Source: Candidatus Termititenax sp. (GTDB lineage: Bacteria > Margulisbacteria > Riflemargulisbacteria > GWF2-35-9 > DYQY01). From it: a stretch of 19,535 bases of DNA. The translations under genes were made by a program, and so were the position numbers. Location: positions 1 to 19,535 of the forward strand of contig DYQY01000015.1 in the NCBI GenBank assembly GCA_020719045.1, given 5' to 3'. Of this stretch, positions 1 to 19,535 are shown one piece after another (within the stretch, counting starts at the first letter, position 1; each line of letters begins with the position of its first letter). Below the pieces are notes generated by a model, which saw only the letters and a list, made by a program, of their open reading frames with translations, made no database searches and was not told the origin of the DNA.

Positions 1-1
1 A

Positions 2-1660: not shown

Positions 1661-2339
1661 TCTTTTTCTCCTCATAATAGGAAGTCAGCTCTTTAGAGTC
1701 CTTAAGCAAAAAATCCCCAACAGCTGTCCTTACTAGTTTACTACAAACACCCACTGTTCCCAAAGCAACACCCAAATCATACGCTAACGAACGAACATAT
1801 GTACCTTTAGATACTTTTGCCCTAAAACAGGCTTTCGGATACTCTGCTTCTTCATAACTTAATAGCTCAAATTCATATATCGTAACAGCTCGAGACTTAA
1901 TCTCTACTTCAATCCCTGCTCTTGCATATTCATATAATTTCTTACCGTCTTTTTTAATTGCCGAATACTTTGGAGGGAACTGATCTATCTGCCCCACAAA
2001 CTTTTTCATAGCTTCTTCTATCTTTTCTTTTGTTATACCAACTGGTGGCACTTGGCTAACTACCTCACCTGCTAAATCATGACTTTCTGTCTCAATGCCA
2101 AAAGTTACTTCAAACTCATATTCCTTATCCACACCAGAAAGTTCTGTTAACTTCTTAGTAAACGCTTTGCCTACCGCGACCACTAATACACCAGTTGCTA
2201 GTGGATCTAACGTGCCTGCATGCCCAATCTTCTTCTCGTTGGCAATATGCTTGAATTTATTCACAACATCAAATGATGTCCAGTCTTTTGGCTTATTTAT
2301 ATTATAAAATCCATGTGGAATTTTAGGTTTATCTTGCAT
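1653..2339 (-). CDS. truB: tRNA pseudouridine(55) synthase TruB
   Basis: TruB isomerises U55 in the T-loop of tRNAs to pseudouridine. The 228-residue protein shows the N-terminal GFYNINKPKDWTS, the catalytic block GHAGTLDPLATGVL with the nucleophilic aspartate at residue 45, KYSAIKKDGKKLYEYARAG, and the SKGTYVRSLAYDLG motif. It is shorter than E. coli TruB and appears to lack a full C-terminal PUA domain, as in many compact bacterial versions. Its ATG overlaps the upstream nrnA stop as TAATG, so translation is likely coupled; the Shine-Dalgarno sequence is weak. The TGA stop lies inside the start of ribF. Confidence 0.96.
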   Translation of the reverse strand: MQDKPKIPHGFYNINKPKDWTSFDVVNKFKHIANEKKIGHAGTLDPLATGVLVVAVGKAFTKKLTELSGVDKEYEFEVTFGIETESHDLAGEVVSQVPPVGITKEKIEEAMKKFVGQIDQFPPKYSAIKKDGKKLYEYARAGIEVEIKSRAVTIYEFELLSYEEAEYPKACFRAKVSKGTYVRSLAYDLGVALGTVGVCSKLVRTAVGDFLLKDSKELTSYYEEKKNE

Positions 2340-3304: not shown

Positions 3305-3660
3305 TACTTGTTCTCCTCTTGATTCTCCTCTGGAACATCTAAGGCATTAATTTTCTCTATCAAATCTGCCCCATTTTTAATGGACTCATCCATCACAAAT
3401 ATTAACTCAGGCACTTTCCTTAATTTAAGTTGTTTTGATAATCTGCTACGGATAAAGCCTTTTGCATTGAGTATCCGTTCAAAGTCTTTATTATGATTCT
3501 TGGAAAAAAAACTTAAATATATTTTAGCAAAAGACATGTCTCTAGTTAAATCAACATGAGGGATACTAAATAGGGTGACTCTCTCTTTAAGCTCTTTGCT
3601 AATAACTTCTGAAACTATGCTTTTGATGTCTTCAGCTACACGAAGGTGTCTTTCAACCAT
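3304..3660 (-). CDS. rbfA: 30S ribosome-binding factor RbfA
   Basis: RbfA is a KH-type protein that binds immature 30S subunits and helps 16S rRNA 5'-end processing and late small-subunit assembly. The 118 residues match the family in length and pattern: an N-terminal helix RHLRVAEDIKSIVSEVI, a middle strand FAKIYLSFF and the typical end RKVPELIFVMDESIKNGADL. A short acidic tail (PEENQEENK) follows. The gene starts 4 bases after infB with little Shine-Dalgarno signal, so it probably depends on ribosomes finishing infB. Its TAG stop overlaps the nrnA start by one base. Confidence 0.93.
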   Translation of the reverse strand: MVERHLRVAEDIKSIVSEVISKELKERVTLFSIPHVDLTRDMSFAKIYLSFFSKNHNKDFERILNAKGFIRSRLSKQLKLRKVPELIFVMDESIKNGADLIEKINALDVPEENQEENK

Positions 3661-3664
3661 AATA

Positions 3665-5710: not shown

Positions 5711-5785
5711 AATAACTCCTTGCCTCTCCAACCTCACCTGGCGTAAAGCTGCTTTAATCTTCAAAACAAACTATCTCCACACGCC

Positions 5786-5807
5786 ACCCTCTCCTAAAAG
5801 AGAGGGT
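5786..5807. repeat. Perfect 8-bp hairpin in the nusA-infB spacer
   Basis: ACCCTCTC (5786-5793) and GAGAGGGT (5800-5807) are perfectly complementary with a 6-base loop. In the nusA-infB transcript this forms a GC-rich stem-loop, but no U-run follows in the direction of transcription, so it is not a typical terminator. It may be an RNA-processing or stability element, or a copy of a short dispersed palindrome. Confidence 0.6.
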
Positions 5808-5824
5808 TTATAAATCATAATTTC

Positions 5825-7123
5825 TTATAAACTCTCTTTAACCTTATCAAAAATCTCAACATCTATGTTGCTTGTAGAACTTTTAACCTTATGTCCTAGC
5901 TCTTCAAGCTTTGCCATAAAATCATTTACTTCCATTCCCAAACCTAGTGCTGCTTCATTTACCTTTATCTTCTTTGATTCTTCTTGCTCTTCTTTAACTT
6001 CAGCAACTGGTGCTTCAACGACTGCTGATGCATCAGGTTGAACACTGTTCTTTTCTGCCATCAACTTTTCTAGCAAGTTAGACTCCATGTCACCTTTTTT
6101 AGTTACATCAATGCTCCATCCTACCAATTTAGAAGCTAATCTTACATTTAATCCACCTTTACCAATTGCTAAAGATAATTGCTCATCATCAACTAGCGCT
6201 CTTGCTTTACGATCTGATTCACTAATAATCTCCACCTTAACAACAGTAGCTGGCTTAAGAGAATTAGCAATAAACACTTCTGGATCATCACTCCACTCAA
6301 CTATATCTATCTTCTCACCATTAATTTCTTTTAAAATCGTCTGAATTCTTGCACCCATTCTACCAACACAAGTTCCTACTGCGCCAACTTGCTCATCATT
6401 GGACTTAACAGCTATTTTCGTTCTATATCCAGCTTTTCTGGAAACTGCCTTTATCTCGATAACTCCTTGCCCAATTTCTGGAACTTCAAGTTCAAACATC
6501 TTCTTAACAAAACCTTCGTGAGATCTTGATACAATAACTTCTGGACCTCTGTTAGTTTTAACTATCTCAACAAAAAACAACTTTATCCTATCTTTAATTC
6601 TGTATTCTTCACCAGGAATCTGGTTTCTTACATCAAGGATAGCTTCTGTTCTACCAAGATTTATTAGATAATTCTTACCTTCTTTTCTCTGAACAACACC
6701 AATAATTAAGTTACCAATTCTGTCTTTATATTCTTCAAAAATTGAGTTCTTTTCGCTCTCAATAATTCTTTGCATAATCACTTGTTTAGCTTTCTGAGCA
6801 GCAATTCTGCCAAATTCTGGCGGATTAAAAGCAATCTCTAAATCCTGTCCGTTTTTTACTTTAGGATCATATTCCTTAGCTTCTTGAAGTGATATTTCAA
6901 ACATAGGATCTTCAACTGTCTTAACAACAGTTTTAGTCACAAATATCTGACCTTCTCCTTCTTTTTCATCCAAAACGGCTCTAAGATTCTCTTCTGTTCC
7001 ATGGTATCTTTTTGCTGCCATAACTAAAGCATCTCTAATAGCTTGCAAAACATCTTCCTTCGGGATACCTCTTTCAGCTTGTATCTGGTTTACTACTTCA
7101 TGCAAACCCGGTATTTTTATCAT
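5825..7123 (-). CDS. nusA: Transcription termination/antitermination factor NusA with IF2_N-like tail
   Basis: NusA binds RNA polymerase and nascent RNA and modulates pausing, termination and antitermination. The 432 residues show the RNAP-binding N-terminal domain (about 1-125, with PPEFGRIAAQKAKQVI at about 101-116), the S1 domain (about 135-200), KH1 with GRMGARI (254-260) and KH2 with AIGKGGLNVRLASKL (319-333). An acidic, Glu/Ala-rich linker (about 350-384) leads to a C-terminal module at about 386-432 that looks like an IF2_N domain: KIKVNEAALGLG, then LEELGHKVKSS. The start of this genome's own IF-2 has the parallel pattern RVHEVAKELEL, then VGVDVKSHAS. This is not the acidic-repeat C-terminus of E. 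coli NusA. AAGGAG lies 7 bases before the ATG. It is the first gene of the operon; the usual upstream rimP is absent and a terminator separates it from comEC. Confidence 0.95.
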   Translation of the reverse strand: MIKIPGLHEVVNQIQAERGIPKEDVLQAIRDALVMAAKRYHGTEENLRAVLDEKEGEGQIFVTKTVVKTVEDPMFEISLQEAKEYDPKVKNGQDLEIAFNPPEFGRIAAQKAKQVIMQRIIESEKNSIFEEYKDRIGNLIIGVVQRKEGKNYLINLGRTEAILDVRNQIPGEEYRIKDRIKLFFVEIVKTNRGPEVIVSRSHEGFVKKMFELEVPEIGQGVIEIKAVSRKAGYRTKIAVKSNDEQVGAVGTCVGRMGARIQTILKEINGEKIDIVEWSDDPEVFIANSLKPATVVKVEIISESDRKARALVDDEQLSLAIGKGGLNVRLASKLVGWSIDVTKKGDMESNLLEKLMAEKNSVQPDASAVVEAPVAEVKEEQEESKKIKVNEAALGLGMEVNDFMAKLEELGHKVKSSTSNIDVEIFDKVKESL

Positions 7124-7158
7124 TTCAATGCTCCTTATTTGTCTTTAATATGTCTTTA

Positions 7159-7190
7159 TAAAATAAAAAAAGTGGGAGAGCCCACCTTTT
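7159..7190 (-). terminator. Rho-independent terminator after comEC
   Basis: On the minus strand GTGGG (7185-7181), loop CTCT, CCCAC (7176-7172) is followed by TTTTTTTATTTT. Flanking A and T runs extend the stem to about 10 pairs. It sits about 60 bases past the comEC stop and about 35 bases before the nusA start, so it should separate comEC from the nusA operon. The A-rich upstream side could also give weak termination on the plus strand. Confidence 0.85.
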
Positions 7191-7247
7191 CTTACAGCTA
7201 AAATATTATATACCTATATAACATATCCTACAAGTTTACATTTATTT

Positions 7248-9185
7248 CTATTGATATATCTGATATTTACCGCTTTTGAAAAATATTCCTACCACTCGTT
7301 TTCTGCTAGATACAACCTGTCCCTCTGATTCTTTGCATGGCAAAACAAAAATATCGGTGACCTGAGACTCCATTTTCTTTGATACTTTTTTAGCCTTTGG
7401 ATAATAAACGATACCAGGCAACTCGGTTGCTGTACTTTGAAGAACAATATTTATTCTAATATTTTTGTCTTGAAGGACTATTAACTCATCATTATTAGTT
7501 ATCTTTACATCACCCCAAGTTATCCCTTTCTGCATTGCAAGGTACTTCCCTTTATCCTCTTTGGAAGATATATCAATTTTTATAGAAACGTCTGGCTTAT
7601 GAATTTTCTTAAGCAAATACCTTTCATTCTCTGAATTCTGCTCCGAAACAAGCATAAGGCTTTTATCTTTATATATGTAAACAACGGAAAACCATTTATC
7701 GTTATTATAAAAACAAAACTCCTTCTCCGGTAACTCTTGGATAAACCACCAATTAATCCCCACGGTTACTATTATTATTGCAATAAAAGCACTCCAATAT
7801 TTGCGAAAAAGATCCTTTTTATACAACCAAACAAAGAACAACAAGTAATAGACAGCTACATTAATAAAGAAAGCTTGGCTAAAATAGATGCTTCTTCCTG
7901 GCAGAGAATACAGCAAGTCTGCAACAACTTTCATAACAACCATTAGTCCAAACACAAACTTTAGTAGCGGCCAAGCAAGTAAGCCAAAAAATGCTGAAAA
8001 CAACATCCCGGCAAAACCCACAATAACCACAATCTCTACCACTGGAGCAAACAACATATTCGCAAAGAGCGCAAAAACATCAAACCTATAATTAATCAAA
8101 AATATAATGGGAGAAGTTATAAGTATTGGACCTAAAGAAATGCCAAGTGGCTCCCTAATTATTGCTGGGATTGACTCGTTTTGATCTAACATTTTCTGAA
8201 TAAGTGGAGAAACCTCTACAACAGCAAATGTCGCACAAAAAGACATAATAAAACTAAGCGAGAAAAGCATTCCTGGAGAAAAAAGAAGCATAACAATCCC
8301 TGTTAAGGATAATACTTGTAATGAGGTTTTAGCTCGATTATCATAATTCAGAAAAATAGTTATCTGCATCATAATAACCGCTCGAAGCACAGATATCTCG
8401 CCACCAACAAACAACAAAAATATCATATTAAACAAAAGAACAATAATAAATTTAGTGGTTTTTGATAAACGAAACAACCCTAGCAATTGTAATAGCACAC
8501 TAGTTAGTAACGCTACCTGTGCGCCAGAAACCACCAGCATATGTAATAAGCCTAAATTAAGGAAAGTATTTTGAAGGTCAGAGTCTAAGTCTATTCCATT
8601 AACTCCAATTAATAGCCCAATCAAGAAATTAGAGTAGTATTCTGGCAAATAGCTTTTAACGCCCTGAATGAACCTATTCTTAAGTTGATAAACCCAAGCT
8701 AAACTACTATCACTTACCTTAATTATCTGCCTGGGCAGAACTGAGGCAATTGGTTTACTTAACAATTCTAATCTTGTTGGGGTTTTATCAACTAGCAGAC
8801 TCCCTGAAACACTTAACTTATCACCAAATGCAAAGCCGTGGTTTTTCTTATACACCAACATCTTCTTGCCTGCGAACTTTTTATCTCCTGTTACTTTATA
8901 CAAAAATCCATAGCTGTACACTGTATCTACATAACCACTTAAATATACATTCTTTGGAAGATGACTTAGTTCCTTTGCAAAATCTTGCCTTATCTGAATT
9001 GCAAAATAGGCATAAAAGAAGAAAAAACCAAAAACTAAAGCTAACTTCAGCAAAAGCATATAGTCTTTTCTTTTATATAACCAAAATACAACTCCAACAA
9101 AAATGACAGCAAACCCTATATATATTGGAGAATATACAGCCGAAATAATCGCGATAATAGCTGTAACGAAAATAGCAATTAACAT
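7248..9185 (-). CDS. comEC: ComEC/Rec2-family DNA-uptake channel, no recognisable nuclease domain
   Basis: ComEC forms the inner-membrane channel that imports single-stranded DNA in natural transformation. The 645 residues begin with hydrophobic segments (about 1-65), then a soluble OB-like DUF4131 region (about 75-160). The Competence domain follows from about 185, with the signature GLLHMLVVSGAQVALL (212-227; the family usually has SGLHV or SGLHI) and GGEISVLRAVIMM, then many membrane segments to about 495. The last 150 or so residues are soluble. They lack the HxHxDH motif and the LDVGQGDA-type start of the metallo-beta-lactamase domain found at the C-terminus of many ComEC proteins, and may be a decayed or replaced version of it. 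A stop codon lies directly before the ATG in frame, so no longer start is possible, and there is no clear ribosome binding site. It is single, with a terminator downstream. Confidence 0.88.
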   Translation of the reverse strand: MLIAIFVTAIIAIISAVYSPIYIGFAVIFVGVVFWLYKRKDYMLLLKLALVFGFFFFYAYFAIQIRQDFAKELSHLPKNVYLSGYVDTVYSYGFLYKVTGDKKFAGKKMLVYKKNHGFAFGDKLSVSGSLLVDKTPTRLELLSKPIASVLPRQIIKVSDSSLAWVYQLKNRFIQGVKSYLPEYYSNFLIGLLIGVNGIDLDSDLQNTFLNLGLLHMLVVSGAQVALLTSVLLQLLGLFRLSKTTKFIIVLLFNMIFLLFVGGEISVLRAVIMMQITIFLNYDNRAKTSLQVLSLTGIVMLLFSPGMLFSLSFIMSFCATFAVVEVSPLIQKMLDQNESIPAIIREPLGISLGPILITSPIIFLINYRFDVFALFANMLFAPVVEIVVIVGFAGMLFSAFFGLLAWPLLKFVFGLMVVMKVVADLLYSLPGRSIYFSQAFFINVAVYYLLFFVWLYKKDLFRKYWSAFIAIIIVTVGINWWFIQELPEKEFCFYNNDKWFSVVYIYKDKSLMLVSEQNSENERYLLKKIHKPDVSIKIDISSKEDKGKYLAMQKGITWGDVKITNNDELIVLQDKNIRINIVLQSTATELPGIVYYPKAKKVSKKMESQVTDIFVLPCKESEGQVVSSRKRVVGIFFKSGKYQIYQ

Positions 9186-9286
9186 TTATATACATTACCA
9201 TTTTCGACAATATTACGTCAAATATTTAATTATATAAATTTAATAACGTACATAATAGTGGCATGGTAGCCTAAGCAAATAAACAG

Positions 9287-9292
9287 TATAAT
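9287..9292 (+). promoter_or_regulatory. Likely -10 box of cmoA
   Basis: A perfect TATAAT ends 9 bases before the cmoA ATG at 9302. No Shine-Dalgarno sequence lies between them and no convincing -35 element is upstream. Transcription would begin within about three bases of the ATG, suggesting a leaderless or nearly leaderless mRNA. In AT-rich DNA a chance match is possible. Confidence 0.45.
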
Positions 9293-9301
9293 AATCATAA
9301 G

Positions 9302-10006
9302 ATGAAAAAAGATGATATTTACGCTAAACCAATGGACCCACTTCCTTCATTCTCTTTTAATGAAAAAGTTGCCGATGTCTTTGATGATATGATCTCAAGA
9401 TCCGTACCTTGCTACAAAGAAACTCAAATGTTAATTGCGAACTCCGCACTTAACTTCTATCAAGAAGGCACTACAATATACGATCTTGGTTGCTCTACTG
9501 GTGAAACACTTAAAACCATAAGCCAACTATCCTCTAAAATTAATAAAATGATTGGTATTGACTACTCTCTACCAATGATAGAAAAAGCAAAAATAAAATG
9601 TAAAGACATAAGCAATATCCGCTTTGTTTATGACGATGTTCTTAATATTAAATTTGAAAATACATCTGTTGTGATTCTTAACTATTTACTTCAATTTATG
9701 ACCATACCAAAGCGTGTTGAACTATTAATAAACATTAAAGAATCTCTACTTCCAAATGGGGCTGTAGTTATTTTCGAAAAAATAGTTAGCAAGAATTTTA
9801 AAAATGATTTTATTAATATCCATGAACTATTTAAAGAACAACAGGGCTACAGCAAAATGGAAATAAAACAAAAAAGAGAAGCCCTTGAAAACGTTCTTGT
9901 GCCTCTAACCTACGAAGAAAATAAAAAACTCATCCAAGATGCTGGCTTTACTAAAGTTGAAAAATGTTTTCAATACCTTAATTTCTGCGGAATTATGTGT
10001 AGTTAA
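9302..10006 (+). CDS. cmoA: Carboxy-SAM synthase CmoA
   Basis: CmoA converts S-adenosylmethionine plus prephenate to carboxy-S-adenosylmethionine (Cx-SAM), the donor that CmoB uses to make 5-oxyacetyl-uridine at tRNA wobble position 34. The 234 residues follow E. coli CmoA along their length: SFNEKVADVFDDMISRSVP (18-36), the SAM motif YDLGCSTGETL (60-70), IGIDYSLPMIEKA, VVILNYLLQF, NGAVVIFEK and QGYSKMEIKQKREALENVL (181-199). The arginine in that last motif matches the one reported to hold the Cx-SAM carboxylate in E. coli CmoA (from memory). The neighbouring downstream methyltransferase is the natural partner. It is transcribed away from comEC. No Shine-Dalgarno sequence is visible. Confidence 0.92.
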   Translation: MKKDDIYAKPMDPLPSFSFNEKVADVFDDMISRSVPCYKETQMLIANSALNFYQEGTTIYDLGCSTGETLKTISQLSSKINKMIGIDYSLPMIEKAKIKCKDISNIRFVYDDVLNIKFENTSVVILNYLLQFMTIPKRVELLINIKESLLPNGAVVIFEKIVSKNFKNDFINIHELFKEQQGYSKMEIKQKREALENVLVPLTYEENKKLIQDAGFTKVEKCFQYLNFCGIMCS

Positions 10007-10012
10007 ATAATT

Positions 10013-10053
10013 CCCCTGATGCTATCGCATCTTTCCCCCTTTGATAAAGGGGG
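10013..10053. repeat. Twin hairpins after cmoA (repeat copy 1)
   Basis: GATGC (10018-10022) pairs with GCATC (10027-10031). CCCCCTTT (10035-10042) then pairs perfectly with AAAGGGGG (10046-10053) around the loop GAT. The element begins 7 bases after the cmoA stop and ends 23 bases before the next start. The first 14 bases (CCCCTGATGCTATC) recur at 10928-10941 with one mismatch. The second stem may act as a cmoA terminator, although only CTTATC follows it rather than a T-run. Confidence 0.6.
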
Positions 10054-10070
10054 CTTATCACTAGTATAAT
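10041..10070 (+). promoter_or_regulatory. Promoter of the CmoB-like methyltransferase gene
   Basis: TTGATA (10041-10046) and TATAAT (10065-10070) are 18 bases apart, a good sigma-70-type pair. The ATG at 10077 lies six bases past the -10 box, about where transcription would begin, and there is no Shine-Dalgarno sequence. This suggests a leaderless mRNA. The -35 box lies within the hairpin of the upstream repeat element. Confidence 0.55.
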
Positions 10071-10076
10071 GCCATT

Positions 10077-10907
10077 ATGGACTTCATCGATAAAGATTCT
10101 ACCTATCTTACAAACGATACTCGTCAAAAAAGATGGGCAATACCTTATTCATATGAAGCGACTAACTCTAGAGCTGATGTTTTGCTCTATAAGAATAAAA
10201 AGTATATTGAAAACAAAACTATTCTAGATTTAGGATGTCACTTTGGGACAATGGCCTATATTTGCTCACAGCTACATGCAACAAGTGTCTTAGGCGTCGA
10301 CGGTGATAGTAACTTAATCGCCCAAGCTAATGCCTTCAAACAAGAAACAAACCTAACAAATGTCGAATTTATACAAAAAGATGTCATAGAATTACTTACT
10401 AATCTTGAGGAAAACTCGTTTGATACTATTCTTTGTTTTGGGCTTCTCTACTATATTCCAGACAACTATCATCTACTTAAACTAATGAAAAAAGTCGCTA
10501 AAGAAACTATCATCCTAGATACCTTTACTGCCTACTACAATGCAATCCAAGGAAAAGACGGGCCTGCTTTCTTCAACAACTTAAACGATGACTCTTTAGA
10601 ACTACCGATAATGCTACACTCAGTCACAAAAGCAAAAAAACAAAAACACTATGAGTTACAAGAAAACACCTTTAGAAATCAACCAAAGCAGAACCCTCTT
10701 ACTTTACTCACTTGCCCCACAAAGTCACTACTTGAGCTATATCTACAGTCACTAGAATTAGATTATAAACAGTTAAACTGGAAAAAATATTTAGCTAATC
10801 CTGAGATGAAATGGCAAGAATTAGAGCCACCTCAGGCAAAAACTAATTCTCATTGGAGTGATTTGTATTCAACTGAAGTTAGAGTCAGCTATATAGCAAA
10901 AAAGTGA
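10077..10907 (+). CDS. SAM-dependent methyltransferase, CmoB-like
   Basis: This 276-residue class I SAM-binding protein shows motif I TILDLGCHFGTMA (48-60), VLGVDGDSNLIAQA (71-84) with the acidic residue of motif II, and FDTILCFGLLYYIPD (115-129). The last resembles the FDTVFSMGVLYHRRSP segment of E. coli CmoB. A C-terminal segment, CPTKSLLELYLQSLELDY, is placed like the PS-xx-L-xx-WL helix of CmoB. Its position directly after cmoA supports a role as the tRNA U34 carboxymethyltransferase that uses Cx-SAM. Against this, it is shorter than E. coli CmoB (about 320 residues) and the N-terminal RKGPF motif is absent. The alternative is a general methyltransferase of unknown substrate. The stop codon lies inside the downstream terminator stem. 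Confidence 0.65.
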   Translation: MDFIDKDSTYLTNDTRQKRWAIPYSYEATNSRADVLLYKNKKYIENKTILDLGCHFGTMAYICSQLHATSVLGVDGDSNLIAQANAFKQETNLTNVEFIQKDVIELLTNLEENSFDTILCFGLLYYIPDNYHLLKLMKKVAKETIILDTFTAYYNAIQGKDGPAFFNNLNDDSLELPIMLHSVTKAKKQKHYELQENTFRNQPKQNPLTLLTCPTKSLLELYLQSLELDYKQLNWKKYLANPEMKWQELEPPQAKTNSHWSDLYSTEVRVSYIAKK

Positions 10908-10924
10908 GCACAGCTCACTTTTTT
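10898..10924 (+). terminator. Rho-independent terminator overlapping the stop codon
   Basis: AAAAAAGTGAGC (10898-10909) and GCTCACTTTTTT (10913-10924) form a perfect 12-bp stem with loop ACA and a built-in T-run. The TGA stop at 10905-10907 lies in the left arm, so a terminating ribosome would cover part of the stem. The symmetrical A and T runs would allow action in both directions. Confidence 0.9.
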
Positions 10925-10927
10925 AAC

Positions 10928-10961
10928 CCCCTGCTGCTATCTTACCCCCACAGTTTGATAA
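10928..10961. repeat. Repeat copy 2, related to the element after cmoA
   Basis: CCCCTGCTGCTATC (10928-10941) matches 10013-10026 at 13 of 14 bases. As in copy 1, a run of C follows, and then TTTGATAA (10954-10961; copy 1 at 10040-10047). The strong stem of copy 1 is lost here. Each copy lies just past the stop of a methyltransferase gene. Confidence 0.4.
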
Positions 10962-11031
10962 CAGTCCCATATCTATATATTTTTACTATGCCCAATATTT
11001 TGTTTTTTAAACCTTCTTATTTATAAAAGGC

Positions 11032-11385
11032 TTAAGCAACCTTATTCTTTTCATCAATCACACTGAAATAACCAGCTAAGTTCTGTTTAAAATCTCTTTT
11101 TGCGATAACTGGAGCAAACTCTTTATACTCAAGTTCTCCCTCTAAAATACCTAATATACTTTTAGCATTATCAACTGAAGTCCACTTGGAGTTATTTATA
11201 ACAAATTCAACACGACAAACATCTTTGTCTTTAATTATAAGTTCAAGGCTCTCATCACCAATTGAGTTATTGTAACAACTAATCTTGTCTTGCATCTTTC
11301 TTAAGACCATCTCATAAACATCCTTTTTCTCAAAATTAAGCTTACTTACATCATCTTTAGTTAAAACCTTATTTGCCAAACTCAT
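11032..11385 (-). CDS. Hypothetical protein, 117 residues
   Basis: I do not recognise this protein. It is charged and soluble, without a signal peptide or membrane segment, and seems to alternate helices (about 10-35) with strands: LELIIKDKDVCRVEFVINN in the middle and GYFSVIDEK near the end. Two cysteines (C37 and C57) are not arranged as a metal site. A purine-rich GGGGGG lies about 9 bases before the ATG and could serve as a weak ribosome binding site. It is transcribed alone, divergently from the Bax-inhibitor operon and convergently with the methyltransferase gene. Clean boundaries and sensible composition support a real gene. Confidence 0.65.
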   Translation of the reverse strand: MSLANKVLTKDDVSKLNFEKKDVYEMVLRKMQDKISCYNNSIGDESLELIIKDKDVCRVEFVINNSKWTSVDNAKSILGILEGELEYKEFAPVIAKRDFKQNLAGYFSVIDEKNKVA

Positions 11386-11475
11386 TTTATTTACCCCCCA
11401 GTTTTCTTTACATTTACACTATTCCCCTTTTAAAAAGTGTCTAAACATAAAAAATATGAAATTTCTCTGGTTTGT

Positions 11476-11524
11476 CTTTCACCAGGCACCATTCACTATT
11501 TACTATTCACTTTTCACTATTTAG
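11476..11524. repeat. Degenerate tandem heptamer array, seven units
   Basis: Seven consecutive 7-base units occupy this stretch, with consensus YATTCAC. The first three units end in CAC (CTTTCAC, then CAGGCAC, then CATTCAC), followed by TATTTAC, TATTCAC, TTTTCAC and a final TATTTAG. The array ends 3 bases before the -10 box of the downstream operon, so its last units occupy the -35 region. The type resembles the short tandem heptamer repeats known in cyanobacteria and other genomes. Confidence 0.7.
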
Positions 11525-11527
11525 CTA

Positions 11528-11552
11528 TATAATAATCTAAAAATAAGGAGGA
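11528..11552 (+). promoter_or_regulatory. -10 box and strong ribosome binding site of the Bax-inhibitor/leuCD operon
   Basis: TATAAT (11528-11533) is preceded by a weak -35 candidate, TTCACT (11506-11511), inside the heptamer array with 16-base spacing. AAGGAGGA (11545-11552) is an almost ideal Shine-Dalgarno sequence five bases before the ATG at 11558. The leader would be only about 20 bases, leaving no room for a riboswitch or leader-peptide attenuator. Confidence 0.6.
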
Positions 11553-11557
11553 AGATT

Positions 11558-12253
11558 ATGAGAGAATATAATTCAGACGCTTTAATCGGACTACAAAGAT
11601 CTTTTTTTAATAAAGTTTTCACATGGATGACCCTTGGTTTAATGGCTACTGGAGCTACAGCCTTCTATGTTGCATCTTCACCTGCACTAATTAATTTGTT
11701 TCTTGGAAACTCACTACTACTTATTGGAATCTTTATAGTTGAAATAGTACTAGTTGGATTCCTTGTAGCAAAAATCGATAGTTTAAGTGAACAACAAGCT
11801 TCTATGATTTTTCTTGGCTATTCTATTCTTAATGGCATTACGTTGTCTGGTTTACTTCTTGTTTATACCGGTGCTTCTATTGCCCTTACATTTTTCATTA
11901 CTGCTGGTACTTTTGCAACAATGGCAGTTTATGGAGCAACAACTAAAAGCGACCTTTCGCAAATGGGGAAAATAATGTTTATGGGACTCATTGGAATTGT
12001 TATAGCAAGCTTAGTTAACATTTTTCTTAAAAGCAATATGATTGAGTGGATTGTTTCCTATGTTGGTGTTGCGGTATTTACTGGCCTCACTGCCTGGGAT
12101 GTACAGAAACTAAAATTACTTTCTGCAAATGCTAACTCTGAAGAAGAGATAAAAAAAGTAGCAATCTATGGAGCGCTAACGCTTTATATGGACTTTATAA
12201 ACCTATTTATTTTCTTGTTAAGAATAATGGGGAATAGAGACAGAGATTATTAA
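11558..12253 (+). CDS. Bax inhibitor-1 / YccA family membrane protein
   Basis: This 231-residue integral membrane protein has about seven hydrophobic helices and the family's conserved end GALTLYMDFINLFIFLLRI (about 206-224). VGVAVFTGLTAWDVQKLK (about 174-191) is also typical of the BI-1/YbhL/YccA group. Relatives include pH-sensitive calcium-leak channels and FtsH-associated proteins; in bacteria the role is often unclear. The N-terminus (MREYNSDALIGLQRSFF) is cytoplasmic-like, without a signal peptide. It is the first gene of an apparent operon: the TAA stop runs into TAAGGAG, the ribosome binding site of leuC, whose start is only 9 bases on. Why it should share a transcript with leucine genes is not evident. 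Confidence 0.93.
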   Translation: MREYNSDALIGLQRSFFNKVFTWMTLGLMATGATAFYVASSPALINLFLGNSLLLIGIFIVEIVLVGFLVAKIDSLSEQQASMIFLGYSILNGITLSGLLLVYTGASIALTFFITAGTFATMAVYGATTKSDLSQMGKIMFMGLIGIVIASLVNIFLKSNMIEWIVSYVGVAVFTGLTAWDVQKLKLLSANANSEEEIKKVAIYGALTLYMDFINLFIFLLRIMGNRDRDY

Positions 12254-12262
12254 GGAGAAATA

Positions 12263-13558
12263 ATGGGACAAACTATAACAGAAAAAATCTTAGCAAAAGC
12301 AGCAAATAAAAAAACAGTCACACCAGGAGAAAACGTCTGGGTAAAGGTTGATGTTCTTATGACTCACGACGTTTGTGGGCCAGCAACTATCGGTATTTTT
12401 GAAGAAAAGTTTGGTAAAGATGCAGAAGTTTTCGACAAAGAAAACCTAGTAATCATCCCTGACCATTACATACATACTTGCGATACCAAAGCACACAGAA
12501 ACGTAGAAACACTTAGAACTTTTGTTAAGAAACATAACATCCCTAACTTCTACGACCCAGCGGATGATACATACATGGGTGTTTGCCATGTAACAATGCC
12601 AGAAAAAGGACATGTGCGTCCTGGGGAAATAATTCTTGGAACTGATTCACACACATGTACCCATGGAGCACTAGGCGCTTTCGCTACAGGCGTTGGAAAC
12701 ACTGATGCTGCCTTTGCATTAGGCACTGGTAAAACTTGGTTAAAAGTTCCTGAAACTTGTAAGTTCATCATGAACGGAACTATGCCAAAGAACCTTATGG
12801 CCAAAGACCTAATTCTTCATGTTATTGGAGACATAGGCGTTGATGGAGCTACCTACTGCGCAATGGAATTTGAAGGAACAACAATAGATAAACTTTCAAT
12901 TGATGAAAGAATGACCATTTGCAACATGGCAATTGAAGCTGGCGGCAAAAATGGAATCATAGCTGCTGATGATAAAGCAATTAAATATGTTAAATCTAAA
13001 ACTAACAAGAATTATGAAGTATTCAATAGTGATGCGGATGCAACATATAAGCTTGTAAAAACCTATGATGTAACAAAACTAGAACCTTGTGTTGCTGCTC
13101 CTCATTCACCAGATAACAAAAAACTGGTTAGTGACTGTGCTGATGTTACAATCACCCAAGCATATATTGGTTCTTGTACCGGTGGTAAAATAACCGACTT
13201 TATTGCAGCTGCAAAAATTCTAAAAGATAAAAAAGTAAAAGTAACAACCTTTGTTGTTCCTTCTACAACCTTTATTGAAAAAGAAATGAACGAAACAATG
13301 ATAGATGGTAAATCTCTTATGCAAATATTTGCAGATGCTGGTTGTAGCATTGGACAACCTTCCTGCGCAGCGTGCCTTGGTGGTCCAGATGACACTTTTG
13401 GACGCACCCATGACAAAGAGATTGTTATATCAACAACAAACCGTAATTTCCCAGGCAGAATGGGTTCAATGAATTCACAAGTATACCTTGCTTCTCCATA
13501 TACAACAGCTGCAAGTGCATTGACAGGAAAAATAACAGACCCGATTAAGTTTTTATAA
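12263..13558 (+). CDS. leuC: 3-isopropylmalate dehydratase large subunit LeuC
   Basis: LeuC with LeuD isomerises 2-isopropylmalate to 3-isopropylmalate in leucine synthesis, using a [4Fe-4S] cluster. The 431 residues show MTHDVCGPATIG, LGTDSHTCTHGALGAFATG (125-143), IGSCTGGK (cluster ligand C305) and PSCAACLGGP (C368 and C371), plus TTNRNFPGRMGS. The cluster cysteines and substrate-binding blocks are all present. From memory the sequence follows the plant plastid/chlamydia-type large subunit closely, for example PDHYIHTCD, AMEFEGTT and AAPHSPDN. It differs from the roughly 465-residue E. coli type. Homoaconitase-like activity cannot be excluded from sequence alone. It is coupled to leuD, which starts 14 bases after the stop. 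Confidence 0.93.
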   Translation: MGQTITEKILAKAANKKTVTPGENVWVKVDVLMTHDVCGPATIGIFEEKFGKDAEVFDKENLVIIPDHYIHTCDTKAHRNVETLRTFVKKHNIPNFYDPADDTYMGVCHVTMPEKGHVRPGEIILGTDSHTCTHGALGAFATGVGNTDAAFALGTGKTWLKVPETCKFIMNGTMPKNLMAKDLILHVIGDIGVDGATYCAMEFEGTTIDKLSIDERMTICNMAIEAGGKNGIIAADDKAIKYVKSKTNKNYEVFNSDADATYKLVKTYDVTKLEPCVAAPHSPDNKKLVSDCADVTITQAYIGSCTGGKITDFIAAAKILKDKKVKVTTFVVPSTTFIEKEMNETMIDGKSLMQIFADAGCSIGQPSCAACLGGPDDTFGRTHDKEIVISTTNRNFPGRMGSMNSQVYLASPYTTAASALTGKITDPIKFL

Positions 13559-13572
13559 GGAAAGGCATAGTT

Positions 13573-14127
13573 ATGAAAGAAAAAATATCAGGAAAAGTTT
13601 ATGTGCTTGGGAATAATATTGACACTGACCAAATAATTCCAGCTAAATTTCTAAGCTACAACCCTTCTTTGGCAGAAGAAAGAAAATACTTTGGCAAATA
13701 TGCACTGTATGGAGTACCAGAAGGACAACAAGGCCTTCCATCAGGAGATAAGCCTTTTATAAAAGAAGGTTTTAGCTCTGAATACAAAATTGTTATTGGT
13801 GGAGAAAACTTCGGATGTGGATCTTCTAGAGAACATGCTCCTCTTGCACTAAATGAAGCTGGAGCAGAAGTTGTTATTGCTAACTCTTTTGCTAGAATCT
13901 TCTATAGAAACTCTGTTAACGGTGGATACATAATTCCTTACGAAACAGAACTAGCACTTAATAAATCATTCAAAACTGATGACACAGCAGAAATAGATAT
14001 AATTAATAATACGATTAAAAATATAACAACTGGGAAAGTTTTTGAATTAAAATCACTAGGCGGAATATTGCCAATACTTGAAGCTGGCGACATTTTTAAG
14101 TATGCTAAAGAGAATAACATTAAATAA
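13573..14127 (+). CDS. leuD: 3-isopropylmalate dehydratase small subunit LeuD
   Basis: LeuD supplies the swivelling substrate-recognition domain of isopropylmalate isomerase. The 184 residues show NNIDTDQIIPAKFLSYNP (14-31), the signature IGGENFGCGSSREHAPLAL (76-94), and SFARIFYRNSVNGGYIIP (104-121). The specificity loop region after FLSYNP is long (ALYGVPEGQQGLPSGDKPF) and differs from the YLRT/YLRM loops of archaeal small subunits. It resembles the plastid/chlamydia type, in agreement with LeuC. AAAGG lies 7 bases before the ATG. A small membrane-protein gene follows, with AAGGAG overlapping the leuD stop. Confidence 0.92.
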   Translation: MKEKISGKVYVLGNNIDTDQIIPAKFLSYNPSLAEERKYFGKYALYGVPEGQQGLPSGDKPFIKEGFSSEYKIVIGGENFGCGSSREHAPLALNEAGAEVVIANSFARIFYRNSVNGGYIIPYETELALNKSFKTDDTAEIDIINNTIKNITTGKVFELKSLGGILPILEAGDIFKYAKENNIK

Positions 14128-14139
14128 GGAGAGTCAGCT

Positions 14140-14268
14140 ATGGAATTAATGCACATTAAATTACCGCTAATACTTATTTTAATGGTTCTAGTTTTTCTCT
14201 TTATTGGATGTATTAGACAAGATATTAAAGCAAAAAGACCTTTTTTCTTAAGAATTAAAGATAAATAG
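14140..14268 (+). CDS. 42-residue single-pass membrane protein
   Basis: This short gene reads MELMHIKLPLILILM, continues hydrophobic through VLVFLFIGC, then switches to a basic tail (IRQDIKAKRPFFLRIKDK). It has one membrane helix at about residues 8-24 and a positively charged C-terminus, predicted cytoplasmic. AAGGAG (14126-14131) overlaps the leuD stop and lies 8 bases before the ATG, so it is probably translated as the last gene of the operon. I do not recognise a family. The stop is immediately next to the last base of the convergent gene at 14269. Chance is possible for so short a frame, but the ribosome binding site, spacing and composition all fit a real small protein. Confidence 0.65.
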   Translation: MELMHIKLPLILILMVLVFLFIGCIRQDIKAKRPFFLRIKDK

Positions 14269-15348
14269 CTAAATAGACATACCTTTCTTATGCTTGTCTT
14301 TTAACTTTGACACTGCGCCTTCCTGGTTGTAATGCTCTATCTCTTGGTTTAACGGCTTAACTATTGCTTCCTTGTCTTCTTCTACTACTTCTTGAGCATC
14401 CTTCTCAATGTTTTCTAAAACAACAGCTTCTTTTACGACCGTTGTGTCATCAATAAACTCGCCTTTAGTCATCGAAATATTCGTTTCAACAACCTTGGTT
14501 ATTCTGTTTTCTTCTTTATGTGTATCAATTACTTGCTTTTTAGTAGCTTCTTCCAAATAATCAGCATCATCAATTACTTCATTTTCCTGCACATCTATCT
14601 TATTTAACTTTGAATACTTTTGAACTAACTCAACGGCTTCATCCATTTCATCAGAATCAAGTGCTAAAAGACCTTCATCCGATAATTCTGATATCCATTT
14701 ATGGATATCCTCTTTTGAATAATCTGAACTAATAAATGGACCTAACTTCACTGTAATTTCATCCATTTCATCTGCTAACTCTGACTTCTTTTCCATTAAC
14801 TTAGCCAATTGATTACTCAAACTATTGGTTCCTATACTAGCAATTTCATCATTTAAATCGTCTGCTACCTTCATCTCTTTATCTAGCTTAGCTTTATCAA
14901 CCTCTGCCCTAATTTCTTTATTAGCATTAAGTTGGTATTTATACATCGCCAGAAAATGATCAAATTCACCCTTGATGTTATCATTTAGTTTTAAAAAATT
15001 TGATAATTTAACCAATATCTTACTTTGAGGATAGATTTCTACAATTTCATCAATAATTGTTACAGGATAAAACACTAATACATCCTTAAGTTCATCTGCG
15101 GTTGTGGAATCTTTTATTGCCAATGAAAAAGCCTGCACTAAACTTCTATTTAAATGAGACATCTTTTGATTATCATTATGTATCAATTGATTACTCTTAC
15201 TAATTAACGTAACTATCTTTCCTAAGGATTGCATATCTTTAGAAGAATAGACTCGAATACCAGCTGAAATTTTTTTTAACACAAAGTCTATTGCCAACAT
15301 AAAGTTATCTTTATCTTCAATGTTTTTTAACACATTACTTAAATTCAC
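14269..15348 (-). CDS. Hypothetical acidic helical protein, 359 residues
   Basis: I do not recognise this protein. It is predicted to be cytoplasmic, with no signal peptide or membrane segment, and mostly helical. The first 145 residues are amphipathic helices. Residues about 145-205 look like a coiled coil (KAKLDKEMKVADDLNDEI, then LMEKKSELADEMDEITVKL). From about 230 it is very acidic and probably disordered (VLENIEKDAQEVVEEDKEAI), ending in a basic KLKDKHKKGMSI. The start is a GTG that overlaps the stop of the preceding gene by 4 bases (GTGA), so translation is likely coupled. It is the last of three co-oriented unknown genes. It abuts the 42-residue gene with no spacer, and no clear terminator was found. 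Confidence 0.75.
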   Translation of the reverse strand: MNLSNVLKNIEDKDNFMLAIDFVLKKISAGIRVYSSKDMQSLGKIVTLISKSNQLIHNDNQKMSHLNRSLVQAFSLAIKDSTTADELKDVLVFYPVTIIDEIVEIYPQSKILVKLSNFLKLNDNIKGEFDHFLAMYKYQLNANKEIRAEVDKAKLDKEMKVADDLNDEIASIGTNSLSNQLAKLMEKKSELADEMDEITVKLGPFISSDYSKEDIHKWISELSDEGLLALDSDEMDEAVELVQKYSKLNKIDVQENEVIDDADYLEEATKKQVIDTHKEENRITKVVETNISMTKGEFIDDTTVVKEAVVLENIEKDAQEVVEEDKEAIVKPLNQEIEHYNQEGAVSKLKDKHKKGMSI

Positions 15349-16931
15349 TTCTTCATTGACTCCTCTATTACTTTTTGAATTAATCCACTATCTACTAATT
15401 TCAACACAGCCCTATCAACCATTTCTTGAAAATAATCAGGGATATCCCCTGGATTCTCTGGGTCTTTTTTCTCTATTTTACCTTGCGCAACCAACTCGTC
15501 CATTTCCTCTAAAACCTCTTTAGTGATACTCTTATACCCCTCACTAAGTTCGTCCTTCAATACTTCTTGTGCTTGCTCAACTTTCTGCGCATCTTTAACA
15601 ATGTCGTTAAACAAATTCATATCAATATCAGCTACCACATACTCCTTGTCACCAAAAATAGAGTTGGTAAGTACAGGGTCATATTTTCTTAATAAATTTA
15701 CAGGATCTGAAGAAATAATAGCAAAAATACGTTTATAGTCATCTGTCTGTAAAGGGACAACATATCTAGTAGTAAGCTCTAACATCAAATCTGCCCTATC
15801 AAAAATATATTCATCAGTTTGCAAAGAAATATACTTTGCAATATTAACACTATTAATCGGCGTCATAAGAACAGCGTTCCGAAGAAACACTTCTTTATTA
15901 TTATCATCTAAATACTGCTTAACAGCCTCATATCCATATTCTCTTTCTGCTTCTTCAGTATGTTCATCCACTGTCTTAACATCAGAGAAGGTCTTCAACT
16001 CATCAGCTAACTCTTTTAATCTATTTAGCGTATTATGTTTTTTACTAAGTTTTCTTATTATTTCATGAAAAAACTTAGAAGTCTGAGAACTGTCATAGTT
16101 TAAATCTTGCTTATAAATAACGTCGGACAACCCAGCTAAATCTGTTAAATTATTAATAGAGAAATCTTTCTTACATCTCAACAGAAAATCAATATACTTT
16201 TCAATTGCTTGTCGCTCTGACTTATCACTCACCTCATCAATCTTTCCTTTAGATTCTGCAAGTATTTTAAATAAATCGGACATAAATTCTTCAGAATTAT
16301 AAGGACTTAGATATACATCATTTACTCCGCTATATGGAACAAAAACCTTTTTCTCCACATTCTTCCATTCTGGAGCATCTTGATTTGCAACCCTAACCAC
16401 CTTGTTATAGAATTGAACAAATGGCTTTTTATCCAAATAAGGATTAGTCTCATACATCCCCTTCATATTATCTAAAATTCTCATAACTGCTGAAAAATCA
16501 TTCTCGTTTTTTACGATTCTTGTTTGTACCCATTCGTCATTAATAAACAGTGTCATACCCACTATGTTTTGCATAATAACTTCCACCTTATAAATGTGGT
16601 CTTGAATAGAAAACTCAAAAACATCGTTATCAACCTTTGGGTTAAAAGAAAACTCAGACATATCTTCTAGATATTTATTTATTATCTCATCAGAGTATGT
16701 GCCATCTTCATTATGTTGAGTTGATAAATCCAGAAAGTCTTTCATTAACTTATAGAGTTTTTTCCCTTGAGATGGATTCTCACTTATACCAACATTCCCA
16801 AGGTTTTTCAAAATCTCTGTTGTTTGCTTGTTTGGATGAATTCCAAGAGTATGCTCAATCATAAAATTAAGTTCATCTGCTATACGAAGCGCATGTTTCA
16901 TTCTATTATTTAAATACTGTTCCTGATCCAC
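15345..16931 (-). CDS. Hypothetical protein, 528 residues
   Basis: I do not recognise this protein. It is long, charged and mainly helical, with no signal peptide or membrane segment. One region with strand character at about 104-145 (FEFSIQDHIYKVEVIMQN, then MTLFINDEWVQTRIV) may be a small beta domain; the rest looks like helical repeats. SSDPVNLLRKYDPVL (about 409-423) slightly recalls MSDPVNYFDIDKD in the preceding gene's product. The end is acidic, then helical. The start is a GTG 4 bases after the upstream stop; the nearest purine-rich stretch (AAGGAAGAAAGG) is about 10 bases back. The stop overlaps the next gene, so the three genes form one translational unit. Confidence 0.75.
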   Translation of the reverse strand: MDQEQYLNNRMKHALRIADELNFMIEHTLGIHPNKQTTEILKNLGNVGISENPSQGKKLYKLMKDFLDLSTQHNEDGTYSDEIINKYLEDMSEFSFNPKVDNDVFEFSIQDHIYKVEVIMQNIVGMTLFINDEWVQTRIVKNENDFSAVMRILDNMKGMYETNPYLDKKPFVQFYNKVVRVANQDAPEWKNVEKKVFVPYSGVNDVYLSPYNSEEFMSDLFKILAESKGKIDEVSDKSERQAIEKYIDFLLRCKKDFSINNLTDLAGLSDVIYKQDLNYDSSQTSKFFHEIIRKLSKKHNTLNRLKELADELKTFSDVKTVDEHTEEAEREYGYEAVKQYLDDNNKEVFLRNAVLMTPINSVNIAKYISLQTDEYIFDRADLMLELTTRYVVPLQTDDYKRIFAIISSDPVNLLRKYDPVLTNSIFGDKEYVVADIDMNLFNDIVKDAQKVEQAQEVLKDELSEGYKSITKEVLEEMDELVAQGKIEKKDPENPGDIPDYFQEMVDRAVLKLVDSGLIQKVIEESMKK

Positions 16932-16935
16932 TACT

Positions 16936-19535
16936 CTATGCCTTTCTTCCTTCTACCTCATTAAGTCCTCTAAGAATAACCTCATTACCCCTCTTAAGTA
17001 ATGATACACCATTAGTTAAAGAGTCCTCCACTATTTCTCGAAGTTTATCTCTTGTCTTCTTTGATAAATAACTTACTGCCTGACTAACAGACTCGCCCAA
17101 AGTTGGCAATGAAATCATTAAATATTCAATCGCCTTATCATAGCTTTCCCTCAACTTTGAAGTTAGCAGTCTCTGCTCTGACGTCCTCTGATTCATATTT
17201 AATTCATATAAGGCCAATACTTTTAACACTGCAACAAATTTTGCTTGTGGCTCAGTGGTTCCATTAATCAGAGCAAGGAATAATTTATTAAAAACATCAT
17301 CACCTTTGCTTAACATTAGCAAGTTACTTACATTCTCAGCAAAAAGATTGAAACTTTCTTGATTCCATGAACTCATCCTCAAATACTCTGTTATATAGTC
17401 TTGGACATAACTAAGGACTTTCTCATTATTTATAAGCTTAGGACTCTGGTTTAGCTGAGACATTACAGATTTGACCGCTTCTTTGCTATAATCTTTAGCT
17501 AAAACCTCTACTGGAATATTGCTAATAAGCATATCAGTACCCTTTGCAACCTGACTTGATGACGATGAAACACTAGGTATCTTTACCCCATTACTTCTAT
17601 TAATTTCAGGGAAGTTCTGTACAAATAATTGACTTACTGCACCATCACGACCTGAGTTATTCATACCTTCAATTGCTTTGGCAACTATCGCTTGTTGCGC
17701 TTGTTTTGACTCTCTTCTAACAGATGATATTAATTGAGGAATTATTTGTTTCGAAATATCCATATCTATCTGAACAGAAGACACTAATGTATCTAATAAT
17801 GCCAAAGTTTTAGCTACAACTGATTCTGACTGAGTTGACTGCATATTTTTTAAAACATTACTTAACACTTTAACAAAATTATCTTTCTCTTTATTAGTCA
17901 GCTTTAAACTAACAAGTATTTGCTCAGATAATGCCACAAACTTATCCATATCCATAACCACAACTTCTTTTGCAATATATTCCATAATTAAAACCCTATT
18001 CTTATTGGCTATTACTTGATTCTCTATCATAAATTTTAATACAGCTTCTGGAGCTTTTAATTCTAATAATTCTTTCACCTTGTCTTCTGTTAACATTGAT
18101 TGATTATTTAGTATTTCAGCTATCTTCTGATCTTTTCCTCTTGTTTGCTCAATATTCTCTATTAACTCATTAAGTGAAGATAACTTCTCAGAAACGACTG
18201 TTTTCTGTTGAATAGTTAAATTGGAGGAAGTTACCTCTTTTTTAAGCTGATTCACTATTGTTTGTAGCTCATCAAAGCCAAACAAGCCCTTTTCTTTTAA
18301 TTTCCTATATGAAGCTCTAACCTCTTCGGTGATACTTATAACATCTACGCTCTTAAGTTTCTCCAAATTTTTCAAAACATAATTAAAACCATCACGATAT
18401 GACTCATCCAATGCTTTATAAATATTTTCTATTAATGCTGTAAACCCTGCTACTTTATTCGCCTTAACATCTTCTTGATTGATGCTACCCAGTGCTCCAT
18501 CTGACACATAACTTTCTGTAATATTTCCATCAATGATTAAAGGTGGACTAATGACATTCGTCATACCTAACACATCTACTGCTGGAATTGGACTTAAATT
18601 AAATTCTTTTGCTATTAATCTAATTACACTCGTTTTATCTAAAACATTCTCATCATCCTTATCAATATCAAAATAATTAACTGGGTCTGACATTACTGAT
18701 TTGATTAAATCATTAATCTCTTTAGGGCTTCTGGGTATAGGAGAATACTTAATAAGCTCTGCTATTTCTGACATCTTACTTTCTATTTCTTTAATTGAAA
18801 CAGTTCCTTTTCCAACAACCTCATCAAGCAAAGAAATTGCCTTTACTATCGCCTTATCAGCTTTTGACTCTTTTACTATCTTGATTGCAGACAGTAATTC
18901 ATCAATTAAATACTTATGGTCTATTGTCTTAGAAGTCTCTTCTATAGTCTTTACTGCAAATATATTAAACTCAGCCGCATCCTTCATTTTCAGGCTATCT
19001 TCTTGCAATATATAACTAATAAGCGCCTTTCTGTTCTCCATACTTAATAAAGAATCCCTCATCACTACTGGGTTCTCATTAACATATCTAGCTACAGCCA
19101 AAGGATTCTTTAACTCCAACAACTGTTCAGTCTTCTTAGCAACTGGCTCATTGTTGTTAAATATCTTTGCTAAATTACCATCCTTGCTCTTTGTTAAGCT
19201 TATTGTCTCAACTGTTGTCTTTAGGTTAGCTATCGCTGCTTGTACTTGTGGCAATACCTCCACCCTCGTACTAGCACTCTGTTTTGCAACGCTCTCTGTA
19301 ATCTGCTCTACTACCTGTGCTAACGTCTCCATACTCTTCTTGCTACTTAAGTCGTTCTTGCTCACTTGCTGTATTAACTCCGCTGGTATTGGAATGCTCT
19401 TCCCTACCTCTGTTAATGCTGTTGTCAACTGTTTTACTGCTTCTTTCTCTTGCTGCTGCAGCTGCGCAGGACTACTCTTGCTCCTATCTATAAATGGATT
19501 ATGAAACGTCTCTATTATTTGCTGTATATTTGCAA
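16936..19535 (-). CDS. Large hypothetical helical protein with internal duplication, 5' end missing
   Basis: The frame is open from the window edge to the TAG at 16936, at least 865 codons. No ATG occurs in the visible N-terminal part. The TTG at 19428 is a possible start, but the codons before it (reading FHNPFIDRSKSSPAQLQQQ) look coding, so the true start is probably outside. Counting from that TTG, residues about 34-227 and 387-568 are two copies of one module. Each carries a KD-xx-A-I-NN segment, then EQLLELKNPLAVARYVNENP (copy 1) or KELLELKAPEAVLKFMIENQ (copy 2), and ends with a LLD helix. The KSVMS segment recurs downstream of both copies (244-248 and 653-657). There is no signal peptide, membrane helix or known catalytic motif. 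A serine stretch (about 619-625) may be a linker. I do not recognise a family; a scaffold-like helical-repeat role is only a guess. Confidence 0.75.
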   Translation of the reverse strand, partial: ANIQQIIETFHNPFIDRSKSSPAQLQQQEKEAVKQLTTALTEVGKSIPIPAELIQQVSKNDLSSKKSMETLAQVVEQITESVAKQSASTRVEVLPQVQAAIANLKTTVETISLTKSKDGNLAKIFNNNEPVAKKTEQLLELKNPLAVARYVNENPVVMRDSLLSMENRKALISYILQEDSLKMKDAAEFNIFAVKTIEETSKTIDHKYLIDELLSAIKIVKESKADKAIVKAISLLDEVVGKGTVSIKEIESKMSEIAELIKYSPIPRSPKEINDLIKSVMSDPVNYFDIDKDDENVLDKTSVIRLIAKEFNLSPIPAVDVLGMTNVISPPLIIDGNITESYVSDGALGSINQEDVKANKVAGFTALIENIYKALDESYRDGFNYVLKNLEKLKSVDVISITEEVRASYRKLKEKGLFGFDELQTIVNQLKKEVTSSNLTIQQKTVVSEKLSSLNELIENIEQTRGKDQKIAEILNNQSMLTEDKVKELLELKAPEAVLKFMIENQVIANKNRVLIMEYIAKEVVVMDMDKFVALSEQILVSLKLTNKEKDNFVKVLSNVLKNMQSTQSESVVAKTLALLDTLVSSVQIDMDISKQIIPQLISSVRRESKQAQQAIVAKAIEGMNNSGRDGAVSQLFVQNFPEINRSNGVKIPSVSSSSSQVAKGTDMLISNIPVEVLAKDYSKEAVKSVMSQLNQSPKLINNEKVLSYVQDYITEYLRMSSWNQESFNLFAENVSNLLMLSKGDDVFNKLFLALINGTTEPQAKFVAVLKVLALYELNMNQRTSEQRLLTSKLRESYDKAIEYLMISLPTLGESVSQAVSYLSKKTRDKLREIVEDSLTNGVSLLKRGNEVILRGLNEVEGRKA

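What the first reader, a model, noticed from the sequence alone, without database searches (positions are those of the whole stretch)
14269..19535. Three-gene block of large unrecognised proteins with coupled translation
Three co-oriented genes (at least 865, 528 and 359 residues) are spaced by 4 bases and then overlap by 4 bases. That implies one transcript and balanced synthesis. All three are helical, acidic and lack export signals or known catalytic motifs. Their total of more than 1,700 residues devoted to unknown function in a compact genome suggests a dedicated complex. They fill over a quarter of the window and continue beyond it.
Basis: partly seen in the sequence, partly recalled or inferred. 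Interest (0 to 1): 0.6.

Follow-up and report, generated by a model that had tools for sequence, protein, structure and literature searches.

The report
Giant protein and two conserved partners
The three genes are real and always travel together in this order of uncultured bacteria; the first is only the tail of a giant protein of about 3,500-4,300 residues with a protease-like head, and its relatives across the phylum often sit next to genes of a flagellum-type export machine that has no flagellin.

Summary
Observation confirmed. Three minus-strand genes (P1 16936-19533, at least 865 aa; P2, 528 aa; P3, 359 aa) are separated by 4 bases and then overlap by 4. The window ends at a 100-N scaffold gap, not at a gene end. 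P1 is the C-terminal tail of a giant: about 3,541 aa here across the gap, 4,258 aa gap-free in relative G004. All seven genomes of the order (class Marinamargulisbacteria, phylum Margulisbacteria) keep P1-P2-P3 together; P3 is found nowhere else in 74 phylum genomes. P2 and P3 have no known relatives.

P1's head is a transglutaminase-like cysteine-peptidase domain (PF01841, above cut-off, Cys-His-Asp conserved), followed by four ~222-residue repeats with hydrophobic segments. The same domain heads 4,300-7,400-aa giants elsewhere in the phylum. In 11 of 24 genomes these lie within 16 kb of a FlgE/F/G-like gene or its partner gene. FlhA is nearly phylum-wide; flagellin is confined to this class.

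Most likely: P1 is a giant peptidase/membrane-active cargo or component of a flagellar-type export system, with P2 and P3 as dedicated partners. Export, membrane insertion and partnership are inferred. The linkage to export genes is absent in the window's own order.

The parts
16936..19533 (-). P1: last 865 residues of a giant protein (full gene on contig C29 16936-27561, about 3,541 aa across a 100-N gap)
   Evidence: gap-free giant homologue of 4,258 aa in G004
18925..19533 (-). P1 C-terminal helical repeat copy (residues 2677-2879); 78% identical over 181 residues to the copy just beyond the scaffold gap
17878..18471 (-). P1 C-terminal helical repeat copy (residues 3031-3228)
15345..16931 (-). 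P2: 528-aa order-specific protein; helical with a five-strand element around residues 99-139
14269..15348 (-). P3: 359-aa order-specific protein; helical N-terminal bundle, long helix 110-205, low-confidence stretch, conserved C-terminal tail
14272..14334 (-). Conserved C-terminal tail of P3 (HYNQEGAVSKLKDKHKKGMSI; H, Y, H and K invariant in 7 genomes)
15345..15348 (-). 4-base stop/start overlap of P2 and P3
16932..16935 (-). 4-base spacer between P1 stop and P2 start

Best explanation
The block is the 3' end of an operon for a giant protein (P1) and two dedicated partners (P2, P3). SHOWN: P1 homologues are 3,500-4,300 aa, with an N-terminal transglutaminase-like cysteine-peptidase domain with a conserved Cys-His-Asp triad, four ~222-residue repeats with hydrophobic segments, and C-terminal helical repeats (the window part); the trio is conserved across the order; giants with the same N-terminal domain occur across the phylum and are often encoded beside a FlgE/F/G-like gene and its partner genes. 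INFERRED: P1 is a cargo or outer component of a flagellar-type type III export apparatus. It would be exported without a signal peptide, its hairpin repeats would insert in or contact a membrane, and its peptidase head would process itself or a target. P2 and P3, made from the same message, would be cytoplasmic partners (chaperone, pilot or adaptor) that hold the giant in an export-ready or assembled state.
For: Trio conserved and tightly spaced in 7/7 order genomes. P1 in G004 is one gap-free 4,258-aa ORF. PF01841 at 8.2e-9 (36.2 bits, cut-off 23) in G000 and 7.4e-7 in G004; Cys/His/Asp aligned across phylum giants. The TG profile hits 36 of 74 phylum genomes, in ORFs of up to 7,430 aa, at their N termini. 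Four repeats with hydrophobic segments; the repeat profile also hits large ORFs in G007, G023 and G059, and nothing among 1,537 reversed proteins. FHIPEP in 66/74 genomes, two or more matches in each genome of this class; flagellin only in this class, 8/74. 11 of 24 TG-giant genomes outside the order, in 8 families, have the giant within 16 kb of the hook-like or partner gene; in the others they lie on different contigs (loci).
Against: In the window's own order the giant is not next to export genes: in G000 the hook-like gene lies on C1 and the partner gene on C17. No export signal was tested. Similarity of the repeats to T3SS translocators (SseC) is far below the curated cut-off. P2 and P3 have no detectable relatives beside giants in other families and no recognisable chaperone fold. 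The class member G007 has a degenerate triad in its aligned TG domain.
Confidence: 0.4

Rival explanations
1. P1-P2-P3 form a giant internal scaffold: P1 stays in the cell, anchored to the inner membrane by its hydrophobic hairpins, with the peptidase head as a regulator, perhaps near flagellar stators.
For: No known secretion signal; soluble helical partners; in G003 and G004 the trio is convergent with a MotA/MotB/cNMP-binding/PAS-kinase cluster; this class has flagellin and five to ten MotA/ExbB matches per genome.
Against: MotA/B adjacency in only two of seven genomes; giants are as common in families without flagellin.
Confidence: 0.3
2. P1 is a toxin-like or effector-like giant delivered to protists or prey by another route, with P2/P3 as immunity or chaperone proteins.
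For: Protease-like head plus possibly membrane-active repeats; a named relative in this class is an intracellular symbiont of a placozoan (PMC6784892); huge proteins are tied to host association in other phyla (PMC11573180).
Against: A family kept across most of a phylum with conserved layout is unlike fast-evolving toxins; no PADLOC match.
Confidence: 0.15
3. The giant is post-translationally modified and works as a metabolic or RiPP-like system, since YcaO is always beside it where present.
For: All four order genomes with YcaO have it adjacent to the giant gene (G000, G001, G004, G006), with B12-radical SAM and methyltransferase genes in G006.
Against: YcaO is absent from G002, G003 and G005, which keep the trio.
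Confidence: 0.08
4. The giant ORF is an assembly artefact and P1 is an ordinary 865-900 aa gene.
For: A 100-N gap lies exactly at the window end; the C-terminal part is a separate gene in G003 and G005.
Against: Gap-free 4,258-aa ORF in G004, gap-free 4,311-aa ORF in G003, and a 1,316-aa piece in G001 that spans the equivalent of the gap.
Confidence: 0.04

Closest known systems
Transglutaminase-like superfamily (Pfam PF01841; also PF06035 Peptidase_C93/LapG)
   Same: Cys-His-Asp triad with a GGDCEDL motif; weak sequence match to a periplasmic protein of known structure (4fgo, E 0.0023; Legionella LapG by own knowledge)
   Different: LapG is a small periplasmic protease (own knowledge); here the domain heads a giant protein with no known export signal, and the C93 score is below cut-off
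Huge proteins of Margulisbacteria (survey PMC11573180)
   Same: That survey reports this phylum as enriched in proteins over 5,000 aa
   Different: The survey gave no function for them; here a shared domain layout and gene neighbourhood are described
Flagellar-type type III export apparatus (FlhA, FlhB, FliP, FliR, FliN, FlgE/F/G)
   Same: Present across the phylum; G000 FlhA and FlhB exceed the flagellar cut-offs; giants are linked to the FlgE/F/G-like gene outside the order
   Different: Flagellin is not detected outside this class; no giant TG-headed protein is known in flagella (own knowledge)
T3SS hydrophobic translocators (SseC, PF04888)
   Same: Coiled-coil segments with hydrophobic hairpins; several weak hits fall in large ORFs with the same repeats
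   Different: No match over the cut-off in 74 genomes

Membership tests
Transglutaminase-like superfamily (PF01841) | Profile score above curated cut-off | tested here: met
   36.2 and 29.9 bits vs 23
Transglutaminase-like superfamily (PF01841) | Cys-His-Asp catalytic triad | tested here: met
   Conserved in the second G000 copy and most phylum giants; lost in the first G000 copy and in G007
Transglutaminase-like superfamily (PF01841) | Peptidase or transglutaminase activity | not testable with these tools
   Needs an assay
LapG / Peptidase_C93 (PF06035) | Profile score above curated cut-off | tested here: not met
   G004 16.5 vs 27 bits; not listed for G000 P1; a stand-alone 383-aa paralogue does pass (32 vs 27)
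T3SS translocator SseC (PF04888) | Profile score above curated cut-off | tested here: not met
   Best 19.1 vs 30.2 bits in 74 genomes
Export-apparatus-linked giant (as described here) | Giant gene near FlgE/F/G-like or partner gene | tested here: inconclusive
   11 of 24 genomes outside the order linked, the others on separate contigs; in the window's order not linked
Export-apparatus-linked giant (as described here) | Secretion through the apparatus | not testable with these tools
   Needs an experiment
Type III export chaperone (for P2/P3) | Chaperone fold or profile | tested here: inconclusive
   No profile hit; Foldseek best E 0.33 and 0.34, models pLDDT about 65

The most novel reading that the evidence does not exclude
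Margulisbacteria carry a nearly phylum-wide flagellar-type export machine, without flagellin in most lineages, whose principal cargo or distal component is a giant peptidase-headed, membrane-active protein of 4,000-7,400 residues; in this order it has acquired two dedicated partners, P2 and P3.
Probability: 0.3. Interest if true: 0.85.

Novelty: new variant of a known kind. Interest (0 to 1): 0.6.

Why it matters
Huge proteins of this phylum were known only as statistics. A shared layout (peptidase head, hairpin repeats, helical tail) and a recurring location beside export-machine genes give a testable function for a large class of dark proteins, and point to a flagellum relative without flagellin across most of a phylum. 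The trio gives small, expressible partner proteins (P2, P3) as a way in.

Tried and rejected
Pfam, NCBIfam, PHROGs, PADLOC and PDB sequence searches gave nothing significant for P2 and P3. Foldseek on the P2 and P3 models and VIA-align on P2 gave only weak, generic helical or short matches at pLDDT about 65. An SseC translocator identity for the repeats was tested and rejected as a membership claim. Homology of P2/P3 to the small genes downstream of giants in other families was tested with HMM comparison and not found. The middle regions of giants align only weakly between the order and the other families. Phage origin: no match for P2 in phages or viral contigs. Alignments A1 and A2 were too diverse for collection scans. 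Tandem Repeats Finder did not see the P1 repeats at DNA level.

Full report
Observation. The three ORFs, strand, sizes, 4-base spacer and 4-base overlap are as described. The proteins are acidic (pI 4.7-4.8) and P2 and P3 are predicted mostly helical. The window is bases 1-19535 of a 33,629-base contig; base 19536 begins a run of 100 Ns. The first gene continues to 27561, giving a nominal 3,541-aa frame with an unknown amount missing in the gap. The frame passing through Ns is not evidence of continuity. The evidence is that the homologous gene is one gap-free frame of 4,258 aa in G004, that the longest P1 frame in G003 is 4,311 aa, and that a 1,316-aa frame in the sister genome G001 spans the equivalent of the gap. 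The sequences on the two sides of the gap are copies of one repeat, 78% identical, a usual cause of an assembly break.

Taxon. The genome scan returned, for relative G003, a record named 'uncultured Candidatus Marinamargulisbacteria bacterium' (contig CAIUUT010000073.1, 39,824 bases, the length of G003:C73). G003 is in the same order as the window. The window is therefore taken to be from that class, phylum Margulisbacteria.

Conservation. P2 and P3 are found in all seven genomes of the order, in the same arrangement behind a P1 homologue (in G001 the operon is cut by two contig ends that overlap in P2). A P3 profile finds nothing in the other 67 phylum genomes searched. P2 was found only in the order among 38 relatives (a single-sequence search that missed G006, whose P2 was then found by position). 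P3 has a conserved C-terminal tail ending HY..Q..VVS.LK.KHK.G.SI. In G003 and G005 the C-terminal part of P1 is a separate gene.

What P1 is. The part outside the window carries a transglutaminase-like domain above the Pfam cut-off. G000 has two copies: the first has lost the catalytic residues, the second keeps Cys (GGDCEDL), His (QGHVV) and Asp. Next come four ~222-residue repeats with hydrophobic segments, then further helical repeats, two of them in the window.

Phylum-wide family. A profile of the transglutaminase-like domain matches 36 of 74 phylum genomes; many hits lie near the N terminus of frames of 4,300-7,430 aa. The triad is mostly conserved. Outside the order, the giants of families f9, f10, f20, f22 and f24 share further homologous blocks. 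The hairpin repeat profile also reaches large ORFs in G007, G023 and G059, and nothing among 1,537 reversed proteins.

Link to an export machine. FHIPEP (FlhA/SctV) is in 66 of 74 genomes, with two or more matches in every genome of this class. Flagellin_N is confined to the eight genomes of this class. G000's extra FlhA and its FlhB exceed the flagellar, not the injectisome, cut-offs; its FlgE/F/G-like, FliM/FliN-like and FlhB genes lie together on contig C1 with FliP- and FliR-like genes (FliP and FliR assigned by resemblance to the G007 set tested). A profile of the FlgE/F/G-like gene matches 71 of 74 genomes, though it also reaches ordinary flagellar rod and hook proteins. In G020, G042, G043 and G049 the giant is encoded beside the FlgE/F/G-like gene and three further conserved families; in G007 two of those families follow the giant. 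Among 24 genomes outside the window's order with a TG-headed giant, 11 from eight families have it within 16 kb of the FlgE/F/G-like gene or the 362-aa-type partner gene; for the remainder the genes lie on different contigs, as can be expected of fragmented assemblies. A random coincidence within 16 kb has a probability near 2% per genome. The table was compiled by hand.

Limits. In the window's order the linkage is broken, so assignment of this P1 to the export machine rests on homology to linked giants. SseC-type translocator identity fails its cut-off. The function of P2 and P3 is unknown: no profile or fold match, low-confidence models. Export, membrane insertion, peptidase activity and complex formation are all inference.

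Literature. A survey reports Margulisbacteria as enriched in proteins over 5,000 aa, with no COG assigned to them (PMC11573180). A member of the class is an intracellular animal symbiont (PMC6784892). Searches of the held library for Margulisbacteria with type III secretion, giant or huge proteins found no description of this locus; subscription papers are not held.

Verdict. A real, conserved three-gene unit; part of a giant protein family with an identifiable peptidase-like head; best guess a cargo or component of a flagellar-type export system with dedicated partners.

Noticed in passing
L020:13766-15316, L069:7340-8890, L023:1300-2811, L068:778-2328, L022:2594-5730: A YcaO protein lies beside the giant gene in every order genome that has YcaO (two extra copies beside P3 in G001); G006 also has B12-radical SAM and methyltransferase genes there. 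Possible modification of the giant.
   Followed up: partly
L133:9564-13046 (G000 contig C28): The second FlhA gene sits directly beside an apparent ATP synthase operon (subunits recognised by eye) and a sigma-factor-like gene.
   Followed up: partly
L131:15348-16499 and L140:1602-2765: A stand-alone transglutaminase-like protein (383-387 aa) lies close upstream of the flagellar FlhA gene and shares an N-terminal IGID..GG.G-like motif with the giant.
   Followed up: partly
phylum-wide: Outside this class 58 of 66 genomes have a FlhA-type export gate and most a FlgE/F/G-like protein, but none has a detectable flagellin.
   Followed up: partly
L025:5481-8471 and L023:18760-19901 with L030:1-1688: A cNMP-binding / MotA / MotB / PAS-kinase cluster is convergent with the trio in G003 and G004 only.
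   Followed up: no
window 9302-10006 and 10077-10907: CmoA-type carboxy-SAM synthase (above cut-off) and a second methyltransferase; look-alikes lie near the trio also in G001, G003, G004 and G006.
   Followed up: partly
L141:6251-11709 and L027:4756-9141, L024:10848-15050: Large unknown proteins (1,195-1,461 aa) starting with similar MNKVIS-like N termini, one beside a third transglutaminase-like gene in G000.
   Followed up: no
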